Below are positions 1 through 14,178 of a DNA stretch of 51,387 nucleotides, piece after piece (positions within the stretch are counted from its first letter, which is position 1; each line of letters starts with the position of its first letter). The notes beneath the pieces were generated by a model, which searched no databases, had not been told where the DNA came from, and saw nothing but the letters and a program-made list of their open reading frames with translations. The stretch is from positions 78,820-130,206 of the forward strand of contig KQ965768.1 of assembly GCA_001574975.1 (NCBI GenBank), read 5' to 3'. Origin of the DNA: Gonapodya prolifera JEL478 (Eukaryota; Monoblepharomycota; Monoblepharidomycetes; Monoblepharidales; Gonapodyaceae). The position numbers were made by a program, and so were the translations under genes.

Positions 1-838
1 GTGGTTGCTTGGTGCGGTGAGTAAAAATACATGGGGTGTTCGCAAAAAGAAGCGTATTCATCTGGTCATTCCGTGAATACCCAGCTCATCCCCGTGTACT
101 TTCTGATCCGCTACCACGTGGACTCCGAGGGCTCGTACGAAGCGCTGCCTGGGTCTGGGGATGACGTCGTCCAGCCTGGGGAGGAGGATGTGGACGTGGA
201 TGTGGGTCCGGAGAGGGACGTGGAGGTGAATGGCGGTTCGAACGGGCAGAGGAAGGGAGATGGAGGCGGACTAGGTGAGGATNAAGAAGAACGGAGGTTG
301 TTGTCGGGAGGAGGAGTGGGAAGGGGTGAGGGGTCGTGAAGTGGATTTGAAATGCGGGCTCCGATATTTATGAAGGAGATTGCGATGCGATTTTGAGACC
401 AGGTTAGGTCGAATATATTCATAATTATTATTGATCTTTACAACATGACACAATCTCCGCGCTGAACAGGCGACGGAATGCGAATGAGACGTCACCCGCG
501 GAGAATGTGTGCATGGATGACAACGCGGGATTTTAGGTTCGCTTTGTAATCATGTAATTCGTGAATGCTTTCTCCGCAAACATTCAAAGATTCTCCGCAA
601 TTTCGCTGTAATTGTATCTGAGCATCTTTGACCTTGTGTGTCTCTGTCTTTGTTCAAGATATTGTGTGATAGAATCCGTTGGGATTTTAAAAGGTTTTTG
701 AATTAGCAATGGCTCTTTATTTCAAAGTAATTCCTTTGTCCGCAGCAAGGCCGTTGTAAAATATTGGGTTATAAAAACGATTCATTGTTGTGAACTTTTT
801 CCGTAATTCAAATATCCACCACCGCGCAACCTGAAGAG

Positions 839-1201
839 TTGTGTGAAAATTGCGAAACAATTCTTGAACTGGGTGGACACATTCTGTCTGCGCAATGCGG
901 GCGCAACTTCCTCAATGCTGCAGACGTTACAGCACGTAACGTAGATACCAATGCTGATCTCACGTATGTTCACACAGCAGTGGCGAAGACGATTCTACTC
1001 ATCAGAGTATCCAACAAAACCCACGCCGACGCCAATACTTTACCATTCACACATTCACTTACCAGCAAAAAGTCAGAGGATGCTTTGGAGGACGTTGACC
1101 TGTCTCTCAACAGGTCTCTTGAACGTAGGCTCGCCGCCATCAAAGAGCGCATGAATACCATAGGAGACGGAGAATGGAGAGAGAGTGAGAACGAAAGTTA
1201 G
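839..1201 (+). CDS. hypothetical open frame, possibly a 3' exon
   Basis: A 120-codon open frame with no recognised family. Its second half is charged and helix-prone (LNRSLERRLAAIKERM) and ends in an acidic tail (WRESENES), which looks more like a real hydrophilic C-terminus than chance. The frame begins at a non-ATG codon, so if genuine it is a 3' exon whose start lies upstream. The neighbouring 1-838 holds only a Gly/Asp/Glu-rich low-complexity stretch (about 120-340, with an ambiguous base at 283) and AT-rich DNA in which I see no convincing gene. The function is unknown and the frame could be chance. Confidence 0.25.
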   Translation: MCENCETILELGGHILSAQCGRNFLNAADVTARNVDTNADLTYVHTAVAKTILLIRVSNKTHADANTLPFTHSLTSKKSEDALEDVDLSLNRSLERRLAAIKERMNTIGDGEWRESENES

Positions 1202-1278
1202 ATTAAATTATTAGATCTAGACTATTTTCGCAGTGGATAATGACTGGATAAACGTATTTTTACTTCGAAAATTATTTT

Positions 1279-1377
1279 ACTGTCCGCATGACCTGACTTA
1301 AAAAGACAACAAATTTTTCCCGCAAAATTAAAAAAACCTAAATCCACACGATGACAAGAGATGAAATGATGCAAGAG
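1279..1377 (+). repeat. diverged copy of the 5' region of the 8.4-kb nuclease-like gene
   Basis: The stretch 1339-1376 is nearly identical (about 2 mismatches in 38) to the reverse complement of 8395-8434, which spans the start codon of the PD-(D/E)XK-like gene. The weaker upstream parts also align: both hold TGTCCGCA, then GACTTAAAA, GACAACA and an A/T-rich run before TAAATCCACACGATG. The copy keeps an ATG at 1351 and the first codons (Met, Thr, Arg, Asp, Glu, Met, Met, Gln). It then diverges and stops after about 30 codons, so it is a truncated relic of the family rather than a working gene. It shows that this gene family, leader included, has been duplicated locally. Confidence 0.55.
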
Positions 1378-1668
1378 TTGTGGACCTCTCACCTCCCCCA
1401 CGCACCGATACAGCACAAAAGAAAATTTGTGAAAATATCCGGCACGTAAATTTCACGATGGAGCACCAATCGCCCAATCGCAGTTAGCAACCAGGCCTGG
1501 CAATATAAGGGGTGAAGGCAGCTCAATAATTTCTTGCTTTCCTCTCAATGGAAACTTCAGTCCCCATCAAGATGGCGCTTGTCCCAGGGGAGGATCCTAT
1601 AGGTTTGTTTTGCGGTTGGCAGCTCCCAGCACAGCCGACTGCCCATATAAAGAATCGTTTCCGTCAGA

Positions 1669-2172
1669 GTGACTCCACGCGCGAGAGCAAAAGTGAGTGC
1701 TGGCGGCCGACAACCATCTGGTTTCATGATACGACACAACCTGACGGTTCCGAGTACAGAGCGGATTCTTGGGACTCATTCAGACGTGCACGTCACGATC
1801 ATTTCGCCCAGGAAGAAGTTTCATTTGAGTGGCCTGATCCAAGAAAGGAAGCGTCTTATACTCGTAGGAGATATGTCCGGCAGGGAGGGGTTGTTGCCGA
1901 AGTTGAGCCAGGTGGGGATGTTGGAGAGAGAGTACGTGGATGGGTTGGGTGATAAAGGGGTCGCTAAGTGGGAGGAGGAGGGAGGGGCGGGGCTTGGGGT
2001 GGGCCTGAAGAGGTGAAAGGGTGAAATTGTGCGCGCCGTGGGGGCAGGTCTGGACGTACCTCCTCATGCCATGGCGGGGGCGATAGAGCTGCAGTACCAC
2101 TGGCTATCGGAGACGGCGGGGTACCGGCAGGCGGACACGGAGGAGTTGAAGCTGTTGTGGTGCGTTGGCTAG
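1669..2172 (+). pseudogene. possible interrupted reading frame of unknown function
   Basis: One frame is open from 1669 to 2172 except for a single TGA at 2014-2016. Downstream of it the text looks protein-like (GLDVPPHAMAGAIELQYHW, then a stop after LLWCVG). Upstream it carries an acidic segment (EREYVDGLGDKG). The TGA lies within a potential GT donor (AAGAG|GTGAAA), so it could be intronic, a mutation or a sequencing error. I recognise no family. The flanking 2200-2830 contains patchy frames with one hydrophobic segment near 2500-2580 but no gene I can defend. Confidence 0.2.
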
Positions 2173-2829
2173 ATGCAGAGGTGTGAGTAAATACTCTCCT
2201 TGATGGACCACACGGAGAACAAGGGTGGTTCGGGGTTCTGACAGAGGTGGTGGAGATATAGGCCGACGAAAAGCAGGTATTGCTGTTGGCATGACGGGCG
2301 TTAGTGTAACGGGTTCCGTGGATGGCAAGGCCGATAGCATAAGCACCTCCTTTCGCACGTACTTCGGAGAGGGGTGGTGGAGTGGAGGACGTGGAGGTGG
2401 AGGTGGATGCGGCGTTCACTTTGGATTGGAGAGAAGCATGAGTTACAGCCAGCGCACTCAATTTCTCATCGCTCGGTCGCTCACTCCTCACTCCATCTCC
2501 TCATCCTCGCGGCCATCGTCAGCTTCCTCCTCGATGTCGCTATCATCCTCACACTCCCTCGTTTGATTATCGGCTCTACCACCAGCGTAGTGCTATTTTC
2601 GTGCTCTTCGGGGACGCAACAGCTTTGTCGAGGAGAGATCCGGCTACTTTTACGACACCATGAATGCGCTGGTATTTTGAAGCGGTACGGACTGGCGGAG
2701 CTGGCTGTCGGTGACTCAGGCCAATAATGCTGGAGGTGACTGAAGACACCAAAGGAGCTGAGGGACAAACAGGCGGAAGAGGGTCGACGATGGGTACTTG
2801 TTAGTCCATCACCCCCAGAACTTCGCGCG

Positions 2830-3153
2830 ATGGAGCCTCCAAACCAGCGCTATACGCACTTGTTTCATTGCGAGGGTGGCGTGAAATGCAACGATTCGGT
2901 AGACTTGGGTGAACTCTGCCCGGATCATGACAGATTCATTCCCGCTGGTGGATGGATTCAGACCGCATTTAGAGTAAATCAGACTTGTGTTGAAGATTCT
3001 GTTACAAGGATATGTTCATCCAAATATTTTGTACCATACGCCGCCGAGGGAATGCACGCAAGGCCTCCTCAGAAAAAGCGGCTGGCACCGTACTGGCCCA
3101 GAACCCTCCCCACGGTGTGCCTCGAGATCTGCTGGCATACGAATGTGGTTTAA
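2830..3153 (+). CDS. hypothetical open frame
   Basis: A 107-codon frame with an ATG, four cysteines in its first half (near CEGG, KCND, LCPDHD and QTC) and no identifiable domain. It lies tail to tail with the leftward receptor gene ending near 3394. No splice context or homology supports it beyond its openness, so it may be chance or one exon of an unrecognised gene covering 2.6-3.2 kb. Confidence 0.2.
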   Translation: MEPPNQRYTHLFHCEGGVKCNDSVDLGELCPDHDRFIPAGGWIQTAFRVNQTCVEDSVTRICSSKYFVPYAAEGMHARPPQKKRLAPYWPRTLPTVCLEICWHTNVV

Positions 3154-3393
3154 ATTGGCGACCGCGGATACCAGCTGGGCAGAATACAGACTGAGTCGTT
3201 GTCTTTCGTCTCCCATTTTCTACACGGGAGACGACCGCTCTACGGTCCCACCCAAAGGTCTGTTCGAGGCCGGAAGAGACGTAGAAGTAGTGTTCTGTGC
3301 TAAGTATTTATTCTCTGGGGGTGACAGGTGATCACATAAAGCCATTTTGCAGTCGGTAGCTTTACCGATATCAAGGGGTGAGTGGAAACTCAC

Positions 3394-5665
3394 GCTTCAC
3401 AGCATTAGCGAACACCACGAGCATTTCGACAAATCTTTCTTGGAGGACTCGAACATCAGATATGATGGTCCGCGCTTGAGTGTTCTGGTTTAAGGTTTTA
3501 TCTTTGATCATGGAGAAATCAAACTTCGTCGCTGTCGAATGTCGAGCAGGGACATGAGTACGACCGATAACTGAAGATACTGACCTCGTTGAGCAATAAC
3601 ACAACTCGCCTTTGGCCATTACTTGGAGCATGTAGTGGAATGGTCGCAAGATGGTCAATTCGGTCAATATCGCGCTCAAAGCACTCATAACAATCACAAT
3701 GACAGCAGCTTTTTGCAAGAGTTGTATGGTGTGAGTCGACTCAACAGAGATCTGATTCAATACCAAAGCAATCGCCACTCACAAATAATGATGATGTTCC
3801 GATTCGTTACATTCAAGTCGTCCGAAAGCTTAGTTTGCAGTTCCAAGCTGTTTGCGATGTAGTCAGTCACAGGCTGCAATGACGTGCGAGGGATTAACGA
3901 AGAACGTATCCCAAGAGCTGTTCATGGTGCGTTATACCCACGGCGCCACTGATAATGATCCACTTGAAGTTGGCCCGCCTATAACTTGCGACTTGGAAGA
4001 AGTGACCGCTTTTGCGAAAGTTAGAGTCAGGAAAGTCGCTGGAAATAATAACGATGAAGTACCGCAAACGACATCGTCAAAAGTGCCTATGGCGAGCGAA
4101 CCTCGATAGGTTGAATCCAGAGTACGACAGGACTGTAGAAGCGGATATGTTGGTGAGAGGATAGTCTGCGACGGAGAAGTCCCAGATTGTCTTCAAAGTC
4201 CAGGTGTTCGAAGCATCTTTGTAGACCAATGGCTATGGATCCAGTGTGATAGGAAGCAACCGCTAAGACAACACTTCTATGATCCAAGGATAAAGAACAA
4301 CTCACTGATGTTGTGGAGGTTATGTTCAACCCTGACATTCCCAACATTTGCCCAGTCGGCGCGATGATGTAGAACAGACTATTTGGCGTCGCCGCCGCCT
4401 TCAACTGATCCAATTGTGACGACAGTTCTGTAGCGGCAAAAAGTATGGCTGCCCCCGCAACAAAGTTGCCCTGACTATCCCAAATGGGAAATGATAGGTA
4501 CTGTGCAAGAACGACTGGAACGATTGAGTTTCCCACCGCGAGCGTAGGGTTGGAGATAGATATAGTGTTTGGGGGGGCGCGGTCAACGACAGACCACCAT
4601 GGGCGTTTCCATACCTGAAAGCCTGGTGCAGACTGTGGAGAAGAGGTACGAGGGATCAATAGGTAATGCGAACGAAAACGTGGGCAATATCACTGTACTG
4701 ATAGAAATTCACCCTAGCAACAAGCTCTCCAAGTGAGAATGTGCCGTTGGCATTTTGCTGTAGCCTCCAGTACGTTGCTGAAGTGTTTGTGGTGGGCACG
4801 GGGCCTTCATGATGCGAAATGGAGATAACTGGATGAGCCGGGTGAAATCCAGTTTTTTACATCAACACATAATACTCACAGAATGATTGACATGTCTTAT
4901 TGGCGACGAGATAAGCAAATACCGGTATGTCGGGAGGTCCAAGGGTAGCTACCGCCACCATGTTCTGAGATACGTTGTTGAAAATTGTCACGCCCATGAG
5001 TTTCTTGTTGATGCCGCGCACAGTCAAAGCAAGGAAGGGACCAAATCGACTGTTGGTTTGACGTATCATAATGTAAGGGGCCAGGGAAATGACGGTTCGG
5101 ATGATGAGCAAGATTAAACGTCACGTACTCATAGTCCTCGAGATCGACGGTACCCAGTTGGACAGCACTTGACGTAATGTTAGCAACGGAAATGATACTA
5201 GATATGTATGAGTCTGTTATAGAAATATCCGGGATAAATTGTGGTGTTTCTGCTTCTGCATGATCAAGACGAACCAGCAGCCCCAAAACACTTACCCATG
5301 TGCGAGAGGACTTGGGCGGAAGTATCTCTTTGCTTGGATTCCGCAAGATCAAGAATACTGGTTGTACCTAGCATGAAACATTCAAACGTTTCCCATCGGA
5401 CTTTGCGATGCACCATCGTGAAGTCAGGAGCAACGTACCTTGGGTGACAGATTGCTTGTTGGCTTGATCGGCCGACGCATAAGATAACCCGGTTATTACG
5501 GAGGCGACCAGAACGACGCTGATGGTTGATTGATTCTAGTCATCTGGGCATCATACTCATCGAGATCCAAGGAACTCACTTGATCACAACCAAAGCTACA
5601 ATTACGAGGCGGAGAGACACGCCAAACTTCTTGATGGGAGTGGAGCTGGGCGAAGCATCTGCCAT
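3394..5665 (-). CDS. Cache-domain sensor / receptor-like membrane protein, copy A
   Basis: Multi-exon gene read leftward. The start at 5665 gives MADASPSSTPIKKFG, then a first membrane segment (VSLRLVIVALVVIK) broken by an intron whose donor is at 5580. Extracellular exons follow at about 5460-5540, 5300-5350 (with an amphipathic helix), 5120-5280, 4880-5090 and 4690-4850. A Cache-like ligand-binding exon lies at about 4310-4615 (RPWWSVVDRAP, then LSFPIWDSQGNFVAGAAILF and YIIAPTGQMLGMSG). A second membrane span lies near 3640-3710 (AAVIVIVMSALSAI), and a HAMP/linker-like helix (ATKFDFSMIKD, then FVEMLVVFANAV) ends at a donor at 3393. Known Cache receptors sense small molecules outside the cell and signal to a cyclase or kinase inside. 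No such output domain is visible downstream, so the gene is truncated, or its last exons are unrecognised. The rightward gene at 11252 is its paralogue. Confidence 0.6.
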
Positions 5666-6077
5666 GAGATGGTAGACAGCGTCTGTGCTGGAATTAATTT
5701 GGAATCAGGGACTTCTTGGAAGATCAGGCAGCCATTATATTTTTTTTGAACACAATCCGAGGTGCATGCCCTTTTTATTTATTTGTTTCTTTTTTTTTCA
5801 CTTGTACTTTAAATCTTTTCTTGCATTGACAATGGGAACCTCCCTTTAATGACGACTTTCGTTTGCAACTGCCCCCAGCAAATTTTGAAATGGGGTAATT
5901 TATAATGTATTGGTACTGTGGATCTAGTGTCAATTTGAACAATCGTGTCCAATAGTTATAAAGTTCTAAATTTTCTAAAACCATGGGCTCAGGGGGTTAT
6001 CAGCTTGCAAAACAGCCAAGTGTTCTTTAATATCAAAACTTTGCAATTCAAACATTTACTTTATGGTGGTCAGGACT
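5666..6077. other. AT-rich non-coding spacer
   Basis: About 400 bp between the receptor copy A start and the palindrome array. It is A/T-rich with homopolymer runs (for example a T-rich tract near 5780-5800) and holds only a short minus frame of 69 codons with skewed composition. I see no gene, only possible promoter sequence for the receptor. Confidence 0.4.
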
Positions 6078-6385
6078 GCAGTGTCGCTTTGACATAAGTT
6101 CGGTCCGAACTTCTGTCAGATGAGCCCCTTTCGTAACCGCTCATCTGGCACAAGTTTGGACCGAACTTATGTAAAGTGCAACCCTTTCTCCTGAGGGAAT
6201 TTCGGACCGAACTTCATGCAGGAGTGCAATGTCGCTTTGACATAAGTTTGGTCCGAACTTCTGTCAGATGAGCGCCATTCAAAGCCACGAATTTGATAAC
6301 CACTTATCTGAAGCAAGTTTGGACCGAACTTCCTACAGGAGTTCATGGTTGTATTGGCAAAAGTTTGGTCCGAAATGAGTGCCAA
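6078..6385. repeat. tandem array of hairpin-forming palindromes
   Basis: Six copies of a 17-bp near-perfect palindrome, AAGTTYGG-W-CCGAACTT, lie at 6096-6112, 6152-6168, 6198-6214, 6244-6260, 6315-6331 and 6361-6374; the last is incomplete. They fall into two tandem units of three cores each, since 6096, 6152 and 6198 correspond to 6244, 6315 and 6361. The flanks are conserved too: GTCGCTTTGACATAAG precedes cores 1 and 4, and CTGTCAGATGAGC follows them. Cores 1 and 2 with their flanks form a larger inverted repeat with arms of about 30 bp (6096-6125 against 6139-6168) and a 13-base loop. This could be a mobile-element end, a MITE cluster, a protein-binding array or a structured RNA. It is not a CRISPR, because the repeats are palindromic, the spacing is irregular and the host is a eukaryote. 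Confidence 0.85.
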
Positions 6386-6721
6386 TCGCACCATGATACC
6401 CTCTCAACCCAAGTTCAGATCGATATTGCCGTGAATTTTATAGTTTCACAAGTGTATTTTCGTTTGTAGGTTGCATTTTAATGGAACCAGTTTTACATGC
6501 AGATACAGCTTTGGGTGGTCGAAGTCTTAGGGCACCCTTGCGCCAACTAAATTTTCCAAACATCGTCAAGCCATCGTGAGCTGATTGCATCTCTCTTTCA
6601 TCCAGAACTGGAATACACGCTATGGGAATTGGAAATCGTACCGGGAATCGTGGTGGGGTGAGTGCAATCTGCCGCCGCTTTTGGTCCCCACCCCAACTGA
6701 CATCTCGCGAATCAAATACAA

Positions 6722-7953
6722 ATGAAGCCATTGGGAGCCCCGAAGGCAATTGCGGCCTCACAAGCATCTCCACAGGAGAGGCAAATCCTCATCCAGTCTC
6801 TTTTGAAAAAGTGGTCTGCAAATGACTCGCCGCGAAGGGTCAAACTCCAGCGGATCAAGGCCGATTCATACATGGACATTCGGCCGCTATACCGTGAAGG
6901 TGTAGAAGAAATCAAGTAGGTTTTGTGTGCCTTTATTTTAGTTTTGTTTGCCGCAAATTGATCCTTGTTAGAGCGTCTATTCGGAAGAACAGCCTATTGG
7001 AGACAACGCCGTTCATTCTCCTGGAACTTGACGACGGATTTTTTGCTGTTGTGGATGGGCGCCACCATTTGAATGCCCTTCTTGAACTGAGGGTGGAAGG
7101 CGCTATTGCCATTGATGGACTGGACGACCTCGAAATGGAAATTACGGTGGTGGTTCTGAAGGTAAGTGAACATTGATTTAAGTCCTTTATGAGTTAAACT
7201 TGCTGACATCTTGTATTTAGGCAGATACACCAGAACAGGAGCAACGCCTTATCAGGCGCAATCTCAATTATATAGGCGAACAAAGTGAGTTGTGTGGATT
7301 GTTCTATCAATTTATTGACTTTTTTAACTGTCTTCTTGGTAGCTGTTCCAATGACTCCGTTCGATACCTTACGTGCCGTGCTGGATGCCATCGACGCGGC
7401 AACCTTGAAGAACAAGAATTGGACCCACGAAGACGTCATCGAAATGCTCCCTGGGGCAGGTAGTGCTGCCCAGTTGAAGAAGTGGATTCCAATGGCNCAG
7501 GTGGCAGTCAACGTACCTGGGGTAAGTTGTACTCCTGGCCCACCCTCAAAGTTTTTCTTTGACGCACTTTGCACAATTCCCTTAGCTCCTTGATCTTGTG
7601 AAGGCTGACTCAAGTGCAAACTTGAGGAAGCCAATATTCACGATCCAAACTCTTCATGCTGACAGCAAGGCATGCGCTCGTGGAACAAAGTATACATTTG
7701 TCTCGGGAAGTACGTGCGACAGAGGCTTTCGGGGAAGCCATCTTCCAAAGAAGACCTCGAACCCCGTCGAGGTGAATACATTACCAGGAGTGCCTCTCGT
7801 GTGAAGGAGTTGCCAAGTTGGAATCTTTACTTTGAAGACTTGTTTTGCTTACGAGAATGTGATAATCTCAATGGAATTAGGGTGGTGAAAAGGCGTTCTC
7901 CAAAGAGGTATTGCCAATTCCGAAAATTGTATAAAAATGAAGGCATTTCGTAA
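6722..7953 (+). CDS. ParB/sulfiredoxin-like domain protein, spliced, frame break near the 3' end
   Basis: The start ATG at 6722 opens MKPLGAPKAIAAS. Exons join in phase at 6917/6972 (EEIK|ASIRKN), at 7161/7222 and at the introns near 7284-7342 and 7520-7586. The joined product carries a ParB/Srx-type core: a helix with EEIKASIRKNSLLETTP, then the hallmark VVDGRHHLNALLEL. ParB-like folds bind or cut nucleic acid or hydrolyse nucleotides. This protein continues with a helical segment (TPFDTLRAVLDAID) that may be an HTH-like part. A base is ambiguous at 7497. Near 7690-7700 the plausible C-terminal frame shifts by one to a segment with LPSWNLYFEDLFCL, ending at 7953. That break may be an error, an intron or decay. 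The stop lies one base from the stop of the convergent nuclease-like gene. The introns mark it as eukaryotic rather than contaminant DNA. Confidence 0.6.
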
Positions 7954-7954
7954 A

Positions 7955-8422
7955 TTAATACTGGCATACAAAATAATTCAAGGCCACAGCAGCGCAAACA
8001 ATGTCTTCTTCTTCGTCGAAATAGTACACTGCTATCCCTGCTTTATGAAATAGCTTTTTCGCATTTTTGAGCCGTTCTCCTTTTGGCATTTCACCAAAGA
8101 GGTAAACTCGAAGCTCGTCCCTTGGATCAGCAAGATTGTATCGATACAGCTGTCCTATTGCGTAGTACCATTGATTCCAGTTCTTGATTTCACAATGCAT
8201 TGTCTCTGTCGTAACGTCTGTTGTTCCCGCAATGGTCTTTTTGTGACTTCCTCCCAACTCTTGCTCCAGTCGCCGTTGGTAGTGCAGCTCCTTCTTGCGT
8301 TCGCTTGCGTCGCAACCTTCTTCCAGGCTTACCGTCATCATTTTACGCTCAAGATCCTTCACCCGCCTCTCCATTTCCTCATACTTTTTTCGCATATCTT
8401 GCATCATTTCATCTCCTGCCAT
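7955..8422 (-). CDS. small PD-(D/E)XK-like nuclease domain protein with N-terminal coiled coil
   Basis: Single-exon frame of 155 residues from the ATG at 8422. Residues 1-60 form a charged coiled coil (KKYEEMERRVKDLERKM). A restriction-endonuclease-fold-like core follows: Glu53/Glu55 in a helix, Asp69 in GTTDV, the E-x-K pair at Glu78 and Lys80 (MHCEIK), and an AIGQLYRY helix with Gln91. A beta strand (LRVYLFG) and a KAGIAVYYFDEEED strand follow. The D...ExK...Q order is the PD-(D/E)XK signature. Similar stand-alone domains recur in fungal mobile or expanded families, but that is from memory and unsearched. DNA cleavage is an inference. A truncated copy of the 5' end and leader sits at 1279-1377. 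The neighbours are a convergent ParB-like gene and a downstream Fanzor. Confidence 0.65.
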   Translation of the reverse strand: MAGDEMMQDMRKKYEEMERRVKDLERKMMTVSLEEGCDASERKKELHYQRRLEQELGGSHKKTIAGTTDVTTETMHCEIKNWNQWYYAIGQLYRYNLADPRDELRVYLFGEMPKGERLKNAKKLFHKAGIAVYYFDEEEDIVCAAVALNYFVCQY

Positions 8423-8435
8423 CGTGTGGATTTAG

Positions 8436-9516
8436 TTAATGTTTTATGAGGGAAAATTCATGTTGTCGTTTTAAGTCGTTTCCTGCGGACAACGTTGCCA
8501 GGGACGACCCATCACACGAACGATACTGACGACAAAAAGTTTTAAAATTTTGAAAGTAGTCGGAAATCTGAGCAGGTAGATAAATTTGTGTTTGTCTTTG
8601 CACCAATTGCTCTGCAGTTTGCATGGAATGTTGCATCTGGTAGCAGTGTCCACCTTTTTTGGTGTACAAAGACATCATCTTTTTTTGTATCAGGGTAAGG
8701 TACCCTGAGCTCGGCAATATAAAAGGTGAGCTTTTTTGCCGGATTGACCAATTCCAACAAAAGTCCAAACCTACTCAAAAGAGCACACACAGAGATGATA
8801 ACACGCACACGCGCGTTAGCACGCCTATCAGAGTGATGTCCCAGTGGGCTATTGATCGAGTGTCCGGCTTACAATCCGTTCGGAGAGGCATTGGTTGGCT
8901 GGTCTGGGTTAGTACGCTGTATCAGCGGGCTAGCTGTCTAGGCCACAACCATGCCACGCGAAGGTTAAAGCGCAGCGCTCGTTTTACTGTCACCTGTCGC
9001 CCCTTATTCGGCTGGCCGCAAGCCTCATAAAACATAGAAATCAACCTTACTGTCACAAGTGACATACGAGCTTACCACTCGTTAGGTGTGGGAGCTGAGT
9101 GGTGGCGAAGGTGGCACAGACGGAAGGGAGAAGAAGCCCGTGTTTACTGATAGATAGGTTTACATCCACGAGCACCGTGATCAGGTGGGATGGTATTGGT
9201 GCTTTGTGTGTGTATTCAGGAACTTACTACATCGTGATCAGCTTTCCCTGCTACTCTCGCGTAGTGACACCTCACAGGTGTCACTTACTCTGTTCAAGAG
9301 AGCCCAACCCGACCCAAACCCAAAAGCCAAAGCCAACCCAGCCAAGCCAAGCCAAGTCATCCACAAGCCAAAAGACCAACACGCAGTTCCTTTGCAGCAT
9401 CGAGTACAGATTGAATCGTTGGACGGAAGATATTTGCCCATCATATATGAAACTTCACCTACTTTCTCCTTGAAACTATCCACTGAGCCTCCCTACTGAA
9501 TGGATGTATTTTCGGG
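8436..9516. other. intergenic stretch with no convincing gene
   Basis: About 1.1 kb between the nuclease-like gene and the Fanzor. Open frames here (for example 8436-8768 on minus) have unremarkable composition, and the part next to 8434 is the conserved leader of the nuclease-like gene. A repetitive AAGCCAA/AGCCAAGCCA tract lies at about 9310-9370. Any left end of the Fanzor element should be in this interval, but I could not see a terminal repeat. Confidence 0.4.
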
Positions 9517-11108
9517 ATGACAGAAAGTTCGGGGCCTCAACGACTGCGCCTTCGAGACTTCGAGGTGGTGGTTTTGAGTTGTGGCAACCAACATCAAAAA
9601 TTGCGTGAAGACGAACTTTTATCCAAAATTACTCAAATACCTCAAGTCCAGGCACGATCTGGATGGATCGGCGGGGTACACGTTGATAAAAAACATATTT
9701 GATCCAGAATACAGCGGATCATGTCCCATTGTACAGCTCTACAAGTCCGAAATTCCAATAGTTCGAGGTGGCGTAGAATCCCATCCCGAGCTGGCACTTC
9801 CTATTCTGTACAAGATCTACAGGTACTTCGAGACCTTGCCTGAAGCTCAGTGGCCGATTGGAAAGAACGGGCTACCTAAAGAGCCAAGAAAATCCTCCTT
9901 GCTGCCCTTGAAACATGGTTTCACGATCAGCCACATGAAAATGTGCAATTTAAGTTTGCGGGGCCTGCTTGTACGAAGTGGTGTCAGTGGTCTTCCTTCG
10001 CAGGACAAATGGATCAAAGAGGGCCACGCGAAAAGCTGGTGGAGAAAGCTGTTTCATATCTCCAAATATGAGAAGGGAACGAGAAAATTTGCTGGCGAAA
10101 TCGAGATTGACGGGAAAGCAGTTAGCGTAACCCTCAGATGTCCCGCCCCGGACAAGGTCAACCCTCTGACAAACAAAGTGAAGCCAAAGAAGCAACTACT
10201 GGCTGAAGAAAAGCTGAAACGTATTTTACCGGAGGCGGTATCTGTATCATCGAATACCATATGGGGATTGGACCCCGGACGAAGTGACTTATTTTGCGCC
10301 ACTAACAACAAGGGGGATAGCATACACTGCCATACAGCTGAATTTCGCGAGGACGCATATTTCAAAAAGAGCAATCAAAAACACACTACATGGACACGGG
10401 CAAGAGACGACATAAGTAGGGCTTACGCTGATATGCCTCGGAAAAAGACTGTGCTTCTGGATCAGCTGGAAAGTTATGGACAATTTGCTTTGGCGAGAGT
10501 TGATGATCTGCTCAGATTTTCGATTCAAAACCCGTATCGTCAGCTTCGATTCAAACGCTTCATTTTCGCACAGAAGAAGTTGGCCAAACTTGCAAAGCAG
10601 TTTGCTCAAGAACCGGACGTTCTGGTGGGATTTGGAGACTGGTCAAACCAAGATTCGGGGATCATCAAGAGCTGTCCCTCAGGCCCGGTTCTGAAAGTTC
10701 AAGAAAGAATTGCAGAAGCATTGTCAAGTGTTTGATGTTGATGAATTCCGAACAAGCAAGCTTCACACTGAATGCCACCAGGTAATGAAGAAGCAAGTGT
10801 CACACAAACATGTACGGAGATTCGATAAAGAAACCGGTTCAAAGGAAATACGATTTGCGAAGGTCAAGATCCACAGTGTGCTCCATTGCTCCAACGATGG
10901 CTGTAAAAGCATAACTGTGAATCGAGATCTGAAAGCTGCGCAAAATATACTTGATCGCTTCATGGAGATGATTCAACGGAAACCCAGAGAATCATGCTTC
11001 TGCAGAAGCAAACAAGGAACTGAACATTGCAATCGATCGCTCTCCAGAGGGTTGGTCGTTGTAGCTGGTATCCAATCCAGTATTTTTGCGTCTTCTGCAT
11101 CCGAGTGA
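9517..11108 (+). CDS. Fanzor (eukaryotic TnpB-like) RNA-guided nuclease, frame-disrupted
   Basis: The main frame runs from 9578 to 10735 and its continuation, one base out of frame, from about 10695 to 11108. Fanzor RuvC parts appear in order. RuvC-I is WGLDPGRSDLF, with the catalytic Asp codon at 10271. Next comes FGDWSNQDSG and a P-rich turn. The alternative RuvC-II Glu typical of Fanzors is VDEFRTSK (codon 10743). A zinc-ribbon half (ECH) is followed by CSNDGC and RuvC-III NRDLKAAQNI (Asp codon 10926). In the first zinc pair the expected first Cys is His (KLHTECH). The N-terminal helical region (NFYPKLLKYLK) matches the usual start of the family. No in-frame ATG precedes it. An ATG frame at 9517 lies one base out of phase, so the 5' end is also broken or spliced. 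Fanzors cut DNA guided by an RNA encoded at their 3' end. This copy may be a recent pseudogene or carry assembly errors. Confidence 0.82.
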
Positions 11109-11251
11109 CATTCTCAGTGCAAAGCGTAATAAGACCATTTACCAGTTTCCAGACGTGGCTGATGGGTGTGGTGCCTGGATGAAGATTCAGGCCAACAGCT
11201 CATCCGATCAAGGTTGGTCGCACCACCTTTGCGAGATTCATAGCGACGACG

Positions 11252-13595
11252 ATGCTCCAGCCAGAACAAAGCTTCTCTAACTCCGCTGTGCGATCGAACA
11301 GTCTCTCGCCGGAGACTGTAACTTCCCCACAAACCGCAAATGCAGAGGTCAGCGGCGCACCCCATGTCGATTCAAGGGGCAGCACGACATGGGCAATCTC
11401 ACTGCGCAGCGTCATCATCCTTCTTGTGTTGATCAAGTGAGCTACCACGACCCTCACACCTCGATGTGACAATTAATTGTTTACCTGACGATCGATCCTC
11501 CATAATCTCAAGCATCGCTTCTGTGGGAGTTGTTACAGTCTGGCTTGGAATTGACACAAACAGCAAGTCTATATCCAAGTCCTCTGACGAAGGTGAGCCT
11601 CCACATTCGGTTAAAGGGAGCAGTGTCGTGAAAGAGAAAGTGACACATGATTCCCTGCCCTCCACGACCGTACAGCCTCACGGAGCATTCAAGCCCTGGG
11701 CAAAGCTCGCCTGAAAGATGCAAGTGGTACAATTGTTACGGCACTACGTAAGTTCTCCCAATCTTGTCATACTGGTGGTACTTCTTAGCGTACCTAGAAC
11801 CTAATCAAATCTCCGGAACATCAGGGACAAACTTCAACCAGGTACATGCTCTGTGGAATTGCCGCTATTTCTGTGGGCTCTTGCGCCCCGACGGCTTTTC
11901 ATCAAACGTCAACGCTCCTTATTTTACCGCCCTCCCCACGACCTGACCCCGCACAGGTGTTCTCTGCGCAAACAAGCATTGTGTCGTTCATGGAGAGTGG
12001 TGTCTTTGACTACACCAATTTCGAGTATGAATAATTTTTTCTGGCGGCGGGCACTGCATTCACATTCTTTCGCAAACTCTTTGATCTCATAAAGCAATTT
12101 CGTTCCTTTTGTGTACCAAACCATCGTCTCTTACAATCTCTATTGTACAGTATCATTTTCTCGTTCGAAGGGTGAGATGCGAGGTTATTAACTATCTCCT
12201 TCCTCCCGAAACCCCTACAGCCACAACAAGCGGCGCATCTATTGGAATGTACCCCAACTCGAGTTCTCGATCCTTTCTCAACCACATGACACTGGCGAAG
12301 GACAGCATCATTGGAGGCCCTGGGCAAGCCACATCGCTCTACCTCACCGTATTCAATAATGCCACGTGCCAGCAAATGTGTCGTACTAGTAATACCCAGG
12401 GCCGAGTTTATGGGTACTGGTGGGATGAGACGACGCTCAAAGTTGCAAACCCCACTCCCATGATCAACACGACAATTCCCCTCGGCACAGAGAACTTTGT
12501 CGCGGTCCCAAAAGGCTCGGCAGTGCTAAGTGACATCAGGGTGGTGTTCAACCTCCCTATTCAAATAATGTACTTGAGCGTGTACTCTCCCTCTGGCTCA
12601 TTCATAGCAACCAGTTCCATCACATTTTTGTTGCGCGACTTTTGCTCCTTGCTCGATACCGTCAAGGCATCGCTTACTCCCAACACCCTCACATATATTC
12701 TGACAACAAAACAACAAGGTCAGGTTGTTGGGATTTCGGGCTTGGGCAATTCCACCATGCAACTACAGGTATGTGTTTTATTGCTGTTTCTCTTGTAATC
12801 GCACTGCCGAATGCATGTTGTTTGTCATTCAAGGCATTATTTGGCGGCTCCAAAATCAAGACAATTTTCGAGTATCCGCTGGAGCAGTACCCAACATTGA
12901 ATACATCTGCTGCGCTCCTGTACCAATACTCAGGAAACAATCTCTCTACGACTATCGAGGATGCAAGTTTTGAGATGGACAATTTCATGTTTCACGTCAC
13001 CACTGTGCAGATATACAATTTTAGATATTTGGTTGTGGTTGGAGCGTAGGTTGTGACGTTGTGCAAGGTTTTGGAGTGAACGGCGCTGACCGCGTACGTC
13101 ATTCTCCATCTTGGATTTTTGCTGGATTCCCAGGCCCCCGTCTGACTTTGTCGGTGACACGGCCTTGCTTGCTGAAACGCTACGCCGCGATGGAGCTCGA
13201 TCGAGCTTGATAGTCATCATTGCCGGTAAGACTGATCACGGAGCGGGGGCTTGAATTGGGCATGCAGGAATTGACATTTCTTTATTCAGCGATCGTCCTT
13301 GCACTTGTTATGAGCGGTATATCAGTGGTTTCTGTTTGGGTTTTTGTCTCATCTCCTTTGCTCGTGTAAGGCTCACGACGTCACTGTTTTCACCTGGTTC
13401 TCGCCACCTGGTGTTTGACTGTTTGTCTTTCCACTTGCAGGATCCTTAAAGCTATGCAAAAGGCAACCAAGTTGGACTTCTCTGACATCCGCGACGGAGG
13501 TTTGAAGAACCAGCGCATTTCAGTCGTGCAGGAGATTCAGCGAACTCAAGACCATTTTGTGGTCATGCTACAGGTATTTGCAAACGCCATTAAAG
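11252..13595 (+). CDS. Cache-domain sensor / receptor-like membrane protein, copy B
   Basis: Paralogue of the leftward gene at 3394-5665 with the same exon plan. The ATG at 11252 begins a Ser/Thr/Pro-rich N-terminus, then a membrane segment (ISLRSVIILLVLIK) split by a donor at 11437, the same ATCAA|GTGAG junction as copy A. Later exons match copy A one by one: near 11512-11593, near 11690-11750, near 11950-12030 (ending in an acidic FEYE-type segment), 12150-12770 (FNNATCQQM, then the Cache core LSVYSPSGSFIA and YILTTKQQGQVVGISG), 12835-13035, a membrane part near 13200-13330, and 13440-13595 (ATKLDFSDIRD, FVVMLQVFANAI). A donor at 13596 follows, but no next exon or signalling domain is visible before the poly-C run at 13870. 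The function is inferred as extracellular ligand sensing. It starts only about 140 bp downstream of the Fanzor stop. Confidence 0.58.
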
Positions 13596-13869
13596 GTGAG
13601 TTTCCAACCATAGTGAACTGGGTAGCGCCCAGTATGGTTTTCGAGCTGACCGATTTGCGTTGCTGGGTGATCGAACTGTACTTGACAGCCAACAAGTCTT
13701 TGATTCGCAAATCATCATACTCTCATTCTCCAGAAAGAACATGAAAGTAACGTTTCATGGTGGTGTCTCGATGAGCAGCTTTCACCTCGGTGTTGTTTTT
13801 CAAATAAACGTACCTGCAAAAGTCACATGAAAATTCACATCACCCCGCCCCCCCCAAACCAAAGACACG

Positions 13870-13906
<37 letters not shown>
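13870..13906. repeat. poly-C homopolymer, 37 bases
   Basis: An uninterrupted run of 37 C, preceded by shorter C runs and CCCCCCC-AAA. It may be genuine low complexity, but it is also where an assembler could have mis-sized or joined sequence. It sits exactly where receptor copy B loses its downstream exons. Confidence 0.95.
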
Positions 13907-13908
<2 letters not shown>

Positions 13909-14178
13909 CTTTTTCCTCCCATTTTGAAATGTGTATTGAGGACGACGAAACCCAAAATTCAAAGCTGCTTTCGCATCACTCACGTCAATTGCGTGCCGAG
14001 ACTCCGTCCTAATCACCAGAATTCCAGTCTGTGGTGCGAGCTCGACATATCGCTCGAGGTGGTGTCAGAGTCTATTTTGGAGAGCACGACCACCGGAACG
14101 TGAGCGAGCCGCTCGTAGGCACTCAAACGAGCCAGTGTGCGTAACTGACGGCCCGACGACCAACCTGGATTCAACGTC

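What the first reader, a model, noticed from the sequence alone, without database searches (positions are those of the whole stretch)
9517..11108. Fanzor RNA-guided nuclease gene in a fungal genome
The sequence shows the RuvC-I motif (GLDPGR), the alternative RuvC-II Glu (VDEFRTS), a CSNDGC zinc half and NRDLKAA in the right order. By known family rules this is a Fanzor, a eukaryotic TnpB relative guided by a non-coding RNA. It has large, unshared N-terminal sequence, and the first Cys of the zinc ribbon is His. Its identity as Fanzor1 or Fanzor2 is open.
Basis: partly seen in the sequence, partly recalled or inferred. Interest (0 to 1): 0.87.

Follow-up and report, generated by a model that had tools for sequence, protein, structure and literature searches.

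The report
Broken Fanzor1 gene in zoosporic fungus
This is a damaged, shortened copy of a known kind of RNA-guided DNA-cutting gene (Fanzor1) in the genome of what looks like a swimming-spore fungus; it is an ordinary relic of a known family rather than a new system.

Summary
Window 9578-10732 (+) encodes 385 residues with GLDPGR; another frame, 10695-11105, encodes VDEFRTS, the zinc ribbon and NRDLKAA. A Fanzor1 profile made without the window (two ORFs of this genome plus printed fragments of SpuFz1, GtFz1, PpFz1) finds the pieces at E 1.9e-10 and 3.8e-7 among 3,962 ORFs, above 1,000 shuffles of each. The published Fanzor fingerprint (DPG plus shifted Glu) is met, and spacing follows SpuFz1 (157 and 61 residues against 158 and 65). 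So it is Fanzor1-derived; piece 1 carries that placing, piece 2 is less decisive. It is not an intact gene: it is frame-shifted and lacks up to 144 N-terminal residues that its nearest relative has, the first zinc ligand is His, and no terminal repeats exceed chance. Two other close copies were found in the genome, both fragments. 9517-9577 is unsupported. Chitin synthase and IFT46 point to a flagellated fungus; the species is unknown. Best reading: a decayed member of a known family. Interest is low.

The parts
9578..10735 (+). Piece 1 of the broken Fanzor1: 385 residues in one frame (remaining N-terminal part, WED-end region and RuvC-I), stop to stop, stop included
   Evidence: E 1.9e-10 to a Fanzor1 profile made without it
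10695..11108 (+). Piece 2: 137 residues in another frame (alternative RuvC-II Glu, zinc ribbon/TNB, RuvC-III), stop included
   Evidence: PF07282 E 5.7e-4, below its cut-off; E 3.8e-7
10688..10735 (+). Stretch in which the reading frame changes between piece 1 and piece 2
   Evidence: overlap of the two frames; the printed GtFz1 and PpFz1 chains run on here
10271..10273 (+). RuvC-I Asp codon of DPG
10743..10745 (+). alternative RuvC-II Glu codon (VDEFRTS), with six residues between it and the first zinc ligand
   Evidence: definition in PMC10711439
10764..10775 (+). first zinc half, His-Thr-Glu-Cys (His in place of the first Cys)
10887..10904 (+). second zinc half, CSNDGC (CxxxxC)
10926..10928 (+). 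RuvC-III Asp codon of NRDLKAA

Best explanation
A decayed copy of a Fanzor1, the eukaryotic RNA-guided nuclease that rides in transposable elements. In life, such a protein binds a short non-coding RNA made at its element's end, finds DNA that matches the RNA's guide next to a short motif, and cuts it with a RuvC site (Asp-Glu-Asp). This copy keeps the letters of that site and three of four zinc Cys, but has lost an N-terminal part and its single reading frame, so it most likely makes no working nuclease. Shown here: homology, order and spacing of the motifs, broken frame, missing N-terminal part, fragmentary relatives. Inferred: past mechanism (from the studied Fanzor1s), loss of function, mobile origin.
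For: Profile of Fanzor1 made without the window (L028, L032, printed fragments of SpuFz1, GtFz1, PpFz1): pieces 1 and 2 rank 9th and 12th of 3,962 ORFs, E 1.9e-10 and 3.8e-7; the rows around them are other Fanzor pieces of the same genome, two of them in the profile; shuffles far below. The SpuFz1 fragment alone has piece 1 as its best of 3,962 ORFs, E 0.0016; the GtFz1 fragment has piece 2 third, E 0.0017; the PpFz1 fragment has piece 2 fifth, E 0.018. PDB profile search with piece 1 + L028 + L032: only SpuFz1 (2.1e-7) and GtFz1 (1.4e-6); with the C-terminal set of 8 rows: PpFz1 first of 24, 6.1e-6. DPG and shifted Glu, the published fingerprint of Fanzors (PMC10711439, passages). Spacing D-E 157, E-D 61, against 158 and 65 in SpuFz1 (D383, E541, D606; PMC10432273, passages). 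Damage: two frames; the 144 residues of L037's open frame upstream of the shared start have no match in window 1-14000 beyond chance (next best E 0.21). Relatives L036 and L037 are fragments. Past constraint: over 106 codons against L036 and L037, dN 0.23 against dS 1.66.
Against: Single-sequence searches of the PDB gave nothing for piece 1, only E 0.72 to GtFz1 for piece 2, and nothing for L028, one of the profile's rows; the two-sequence profile A4 gave GtFz1 at 0.51. The profile of L028 + L032 alone gives piece 1 only 0.0041, and piece 2 is not among its printed rows, down to E 0.34. In one search a chain named 'Transposase' is level with PpFz1 (6.2e-6) and SpuFz1 is last of 24 (0.079). Pfam's TNB model scores piece 2 under its cut-off (20.4 against 26.3 bits), and the genome search with that model did not list the window's own copy among its 37 rows. 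Alignment A3 is two thirds other sequences. The 385-codon open piece is long for a very old relic, so the frame change may be young or an assembly error. Splicing could in principle join the frames: 25 GT..AG spans keep a frame open, none with a GTRAGT donor; 24 of 25 would remove the GDWS or the Glu motif, one would not.
Confidence: 0.85

Rival explanations
1. An intact Fanzor1 gene that only looks broken: the frame change is an assembly or sequencing error or a hidden intron, and the N-terminal part lies in an unrecognised upstream exon.
For: Piece 1 is open for 385 codons and all three acidic residues remain. Other Fanzor copies of this genome appear to carry an intron (L027, L029, L033: GTGAGT inside the zinc ribbon). 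One of 25 candidate intron spans keeps both GDWS and the Glu motif.
Against: No match beyond chance to L037's 144 upstream residues in window 1-14000. First zinc Cys lost. No terminal inverted repeats above chance (best score 11; 3 of 30 null pairs reached 11 or more).
Confidence: 0.1
2. A Fanzor2 or a bacterial-type TnpB rather than a Fanzor1.
For: Piece 2 matches TnpB models weakly (PF07282 5.7e-4, NF040570 0.0084), a phage transposase family at 0.034, and the C-terminal profile hits TnpB-type chains nearly as well as PpFz1, though two of its eight rows are Fanzor2-like.
Against: PDB profile with piece 1 finds only Fanzor1 chains; CxxxxC second half as in GtFz1 and PpFz1; the Fanzor2-like ORFs of this genome (L021, L022; my label, from DPG, shifted Glu and CxxC-CxxC) have a short loop.
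Confidence: 0.03
3. A truncated, repurposed Fanzor-derived protein made as two shorter chains or by a programmed frame change.
For: Both pieces are open and the family was under protein-level constraint in the past.
Against: The constraint is measured between copies that are themselves fragments and says nothing of the present state; no copy with the same break was found.
Confidence: 0.02

Closest known systems
SpuFz1 (Spizellomyces punctatus Fanzor1; 8gkh)
   Same: RuvC order and spacing; DG of the WED-region motif in the same aligned place; fungal host
   Different: intact; the prototype SPu-1-1p is one 633-residue frame in an element with 33-bp terminal repeats (PMC3627910). Window copy broken, DPG where SpuFz1 has DPN, His-Cys first zinc half
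PpFz1 (Parasitella parasitica Fanzor1; 9cf0)
   Same: GNWS ... IDEFRTS ... CxxxxC ... NRD string very like GDWS ... VDEFRTS ... CSNDGC ... NRD
   Different: intact, with Cys in the first zinc position; whether the window copy had the FRI insertion of PpFz1 was not tested
GtFz1 (Guillardia theta Fanzor1; 9cer)
   Same: CTNDSC second zinc half; best single-sequence PDB hit of piece 2, though not significant (E 0.72)
   Different: third acidic residue is Asn in GtFz1, Asp here (Asn in the relative L036)

Membership tests
Fanzor (Fanzor1 + Fanzor2) | DPG in RuvC-I | tested here: met
   GLDPGR at 10265-10282; definition PMC10711439
Fanzor (Fanzor1 + Fanzor2) | alternative Glu six residues before the zinc ribbon | tested here: met
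   EFRTSKLH: six residues between Glu and the first ligand
Fanzor (Fanzor1 + Fanzor2) | D-X(125,275)-[TS][TS]-XX-[C4 zinc finger]-X(5,50)-RD in one chain | tested here: inconclusive
   Order and spacing met (about 159 residues from Asp to TS, then KL; RD six residues after the last Cys), but first Cys is His and the string crosses a frame change (motif from PMC3627910)
Fanzor (Fanzor1 + Fanzor2) | Asp-Glu-Asp site of a RuvC fold, brought together in space | tested here: inconclusive
   Residues and spacing present; piece-1 model unusable (pLDDT 35); whole chain not modelled
Fanzor (Fanzor1 + Fanzor2) | intact open reading frame | tested here: not met
   two frames, N-terminal part missing; so it is filed as a relic derived from the family, not as a working member
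Fanzor1 | sequence closer to Fanzor1 than to Fanzor2 or TnpB | tested here: met
   Piece 1: 2 of 2 PDB chains are Fanzor1 (profile two thirds other rows). Piece 2 equivocal: PpFz1 first, TnpB-type chains level. No tree was built
Fanzor1 | TDG motif in the WED region | tested here: inconclusive
   aligned residues are IDG in the window, TNG in L028 and L032, TDG in SpuFz1
Fanzor1 | carried in a transposable element with terminal repeats | tested here: inconclusive
   no inverted repeats above chance around the gene; boundaries not found
Fanzor1 | guide RNA from the element's end | tested here: inconclusive
   no second copy with alignable 3' flank; fold of 10980-11170 z -1.49, 17 of 200 shuffles as good; no Rfam match in the window at gathering scores
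Fanzor1 | RNA-guided DNA cleavage | not testable with these tools
   needs an experiment
Fanzor2 | CxxC-short loop-CxxC ribbon, IS607-type carrier | tested here: not met
   HxxC and CxxxxC with 37 residues between them; carrier not tested

The most novel reading that the evidence does not exclude
A distinct Fanzor1 sub-lineage with an HCCC ribbon that persists in this fungus as a split or truncated protein with a new role.
Probability: 0.03. Interest if true: 0.5.

Novelty: new member of a known kind. Interest (0 to 1): 0.2.

Why it matters
On its own, little: one more decayed Fanzor1, probably in the kind of fungus in which the family was first found (Spizellomyces punctatus, PMC3627910). The genome around it is of more use. 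It has 37 rows of zinc-ribbon matches at E up to 1, 19 rows (18 places) of them over Pfam's cut-off (lower bounds), among them long open frames of two types, so it could serve to study how Fanzor groups spread side by side in one host.

Tried and rejected
Intron instead of frame change: 25 GT..AG spans of 36-150 bases would keep a frame open, none with a GTRAGT donor; 24 of 25 remove GDWS or the Glu motif (judged from its coordinates). The remaining one (55 bases) keeps both but removes a stretch to which the GtFz1 and PpFz1 chains have a counterpart (by eye). Rejected as less likely, not excluded.

In-frame TGA in four relatives as a recoded codon (for example selenocysteine): rejected. In L027, L029 and L033 the TGA is part of a GTGAGT string, in L031 of GTTGAG, and what follows reads like a short intron (no transcripts seen).

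Terminal inverted repeats of a carrier element: arms 9275-9291 / 11633-11649; the same pair scores 11, reached by 3 of 30 null pairs, and the right arm lies in the neighbouring repeated stretch. Rejected.

Shared 3' flank as guide RNA: the stretch 11221-11700 found in three other places is the start of a neighbouring multi-copy stretch that runs on for kilobases without Fanzor; I take it for a gene family, though its ORF 12085-12798 has no Pfam match.

Relatives in viral contigs: 4, 42 and 8 stretches matched patterns of piece 1, alignment A3 and piece 2; 0 were confirmed at E up to 1e-3.

Naming the host from its genome size: one paper search, 0 hits.

Full report
What is in the sequence. Piece 1 (9578-10735 with stop, 385 residues) carries NTIWGLDPGRSDLF; piece 2 (10695-11108 with stop, 137 residues) carries VDEFRTSKLHTECH, CSNDGC and NRDLKAAQNIL. 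The pieces overlap in different frames. The ATG at 9517 belongs to a third frame (ORF 9487-9702), and nothing ties 9517-9577 to the gene: L037, the nearest relative at this end, aligns from 9581.

What it is. With single sequences the signal is weak. Pfam: TNB at 5.7e-4 and below cut-off for piece 2, only BetR at 0.25 for piece 1. NCBIfam: TnpB at 0.0084 (15.4 bits against a cut-off of 100) for piece 2, nothing for piece 1. PHROGs: a transposase family at 0.034 for piece 2, nothing for piece 1. PDB: nothing for piece 1, GtFz1 at 0.72 for piece 2. With profiles it is clear. From the fetched stretches of the same genome (20 stretches) I took two long ORFs, L028 (480 residues) and L032 (459 residues), both over the Pfam TNB cut-off; L028 alone finds nothing in the PDB. 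A profile of these with printed fragments of three solved Fanzor1s, without the window, finds piece 1 at 1.9e-10 and piece 2 at 3.8e-7 among 3,962 ORFs of the window and the 20 stretches (ORFs made). One thousand shuffles of each reach at most 4.3 and 9.0 bits against 37.7 and 26.9. The profile of L028 and L032 alone gives piece 1 only 0.0041, and piece 2 is not among its printed rows, down to E 0.34. PDB search with piece 1 + L028 + L032 returns exactly SpuFz1 and GtFz1. With the eight-row C-terminal set it returns 24 chains: PpFz1 first (6.1e-6), then a chain named 'Transposase' (6.2e-6), TnpB-like L79 (1.1e-5), GtFz1 (1e-4) and others, SpuFz1 last (0.079). That set contains two Fanzor2-like rows, which may explain part of the mixture. 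So the Fanzor1 label rests mainly on piece 1.

Fanzor fingerprint. Yoon and others (PMC10711439, passages) name DPG in RuvC-I and a Glu six residues before the zinc finger as the molecular fingerprint of Fanzors. Both are met. Bao and Jurka (PMC3627910, passages) give the longer motif; order and spacing fit, but the first Cys is His and the string crosses the frame change. Saito and others (PMC10432273, passages) give SpuFz1 D383, E541, D606: spacings 158 and 65, here 157 and 61 (from the codon positions). The first Asp is residue 232 of piece 1; adding the 144 residues of L037's open frame upstream of the shared start puts it near 375, close to 383. That agreement is an inference from L037, whose true start is unknown, and suggests that the window copy has lost up to 144 residues.

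Damage and age. Upstream, L037's 144 residues have no counterpart in window 1-14000 (next best E 0.21). Three places were found that hold this close family: the window, C102 (L036, 64 residues at 67%) and C86 (L037, 42 residues at 64% and 72 at 39%). L036 and L037 are fragments. Three further rows (C5, C8, C7; E 0.002 to 0.025) are more distant Fanzors. The genome search gives lower bounds, and L036 holds 1,879 withheld bases, so a copy could be missed. Over 106 codons, dN is 0.23 and dS 1.66: the family once made protein under constraint. Synonymous change near saturation says the copies parted long ago; the long open frame of piece 1 says its break is younger, or an assembly error.

Host and neighbours. 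The genome (47,557,447 bases in 207 contigs) has Chitin_synth_1 (9 rows on 5 contigs) and the ciliary protein IFT46 (3 rows at one place). Neither is in the 14 control genomes, but those that names are bacteria and archaea, so they do not test fungus against other eukaryotes; that the two families together mean a flagellated fungus is recalled knowledge. The species was not identified. Right of the Fanzor, a multi-copy stretch begins at about 11167-11250 (paralogues on C27, C97, C21). Left of it lies a repeated block at 9051-9284. No element ends were found.

Mechanism. For working Fanzor1s it is known from the papers above and PMC11423790 (passages): RNA-guided DNA cutting by a RuvC site next to a TNB domain. 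For this copy no step of it was tested, and the damage makes activity unlikely.

Limits. The protein database was not available. The whole chain was not read through or modelled; the piece-1 model has mean pLDDT 35 and was not used. Four papers were seen in passages only; other papers only as search listings.

Noticed in passing
L021 (G000:C37:92000-101900), 3832-4677 (-) and 4733-7009 (+): A Fanzor1-like ORF (282 aa) and a Fanzor2-like ORF (759 aa, DPG, shifted Glu, CxxC-CxxC; my labels) sit on opposite strands 55 bases apart. The PDB hits of the larger one are TnpB and Cas12f-type chains.
   Followed up: partly
L028 (G000:C114:30500-39500), 2943-4382 (-) and 5366-6382 (-): A 480-aa Fanzor1-like ORF lies about 1 kb from an ORF with a DDE_3 transposase domain on the same strand.
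   Followed up: partly
L027 5402-5404, L029 3271-3273, L031 2826-2828, L033 5147-5149: Four Fanzor copies share an in-frame TGA between the zinc halves; in L027, L029 and L033 it is part of a GTGAGT string that looks like the donor of a short intron.
   Followed up: yes
L036 3014-3355 (-): The nearest relative of piece 2 has NRN where the window has NRD; GtFz1 too has Asn there and is active (PMC11423790).
   Followed up: no
window 9051-9284: A short repeated block with palindromic ends, with copies on C127 (91%), C150, C39 (two) and C29 (73-76%); looks like a small non-autonomous element just left of the Fanzor.
   Followed up: partly
window 6071-7671: A 1.6-kb stretch with a 95% copy on C44:208067-209667; four ORFs tested in it have no Pfam match.
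   Followed up: partly
L022 (G000:C165:11500-20000): A 635-aa Fanzor2-like ORF (my label) on a 43-kb contig beside a patatin-like ORF and an NB-ARC/TPR ORF; origin of the contig not tested.
   Followed up: no
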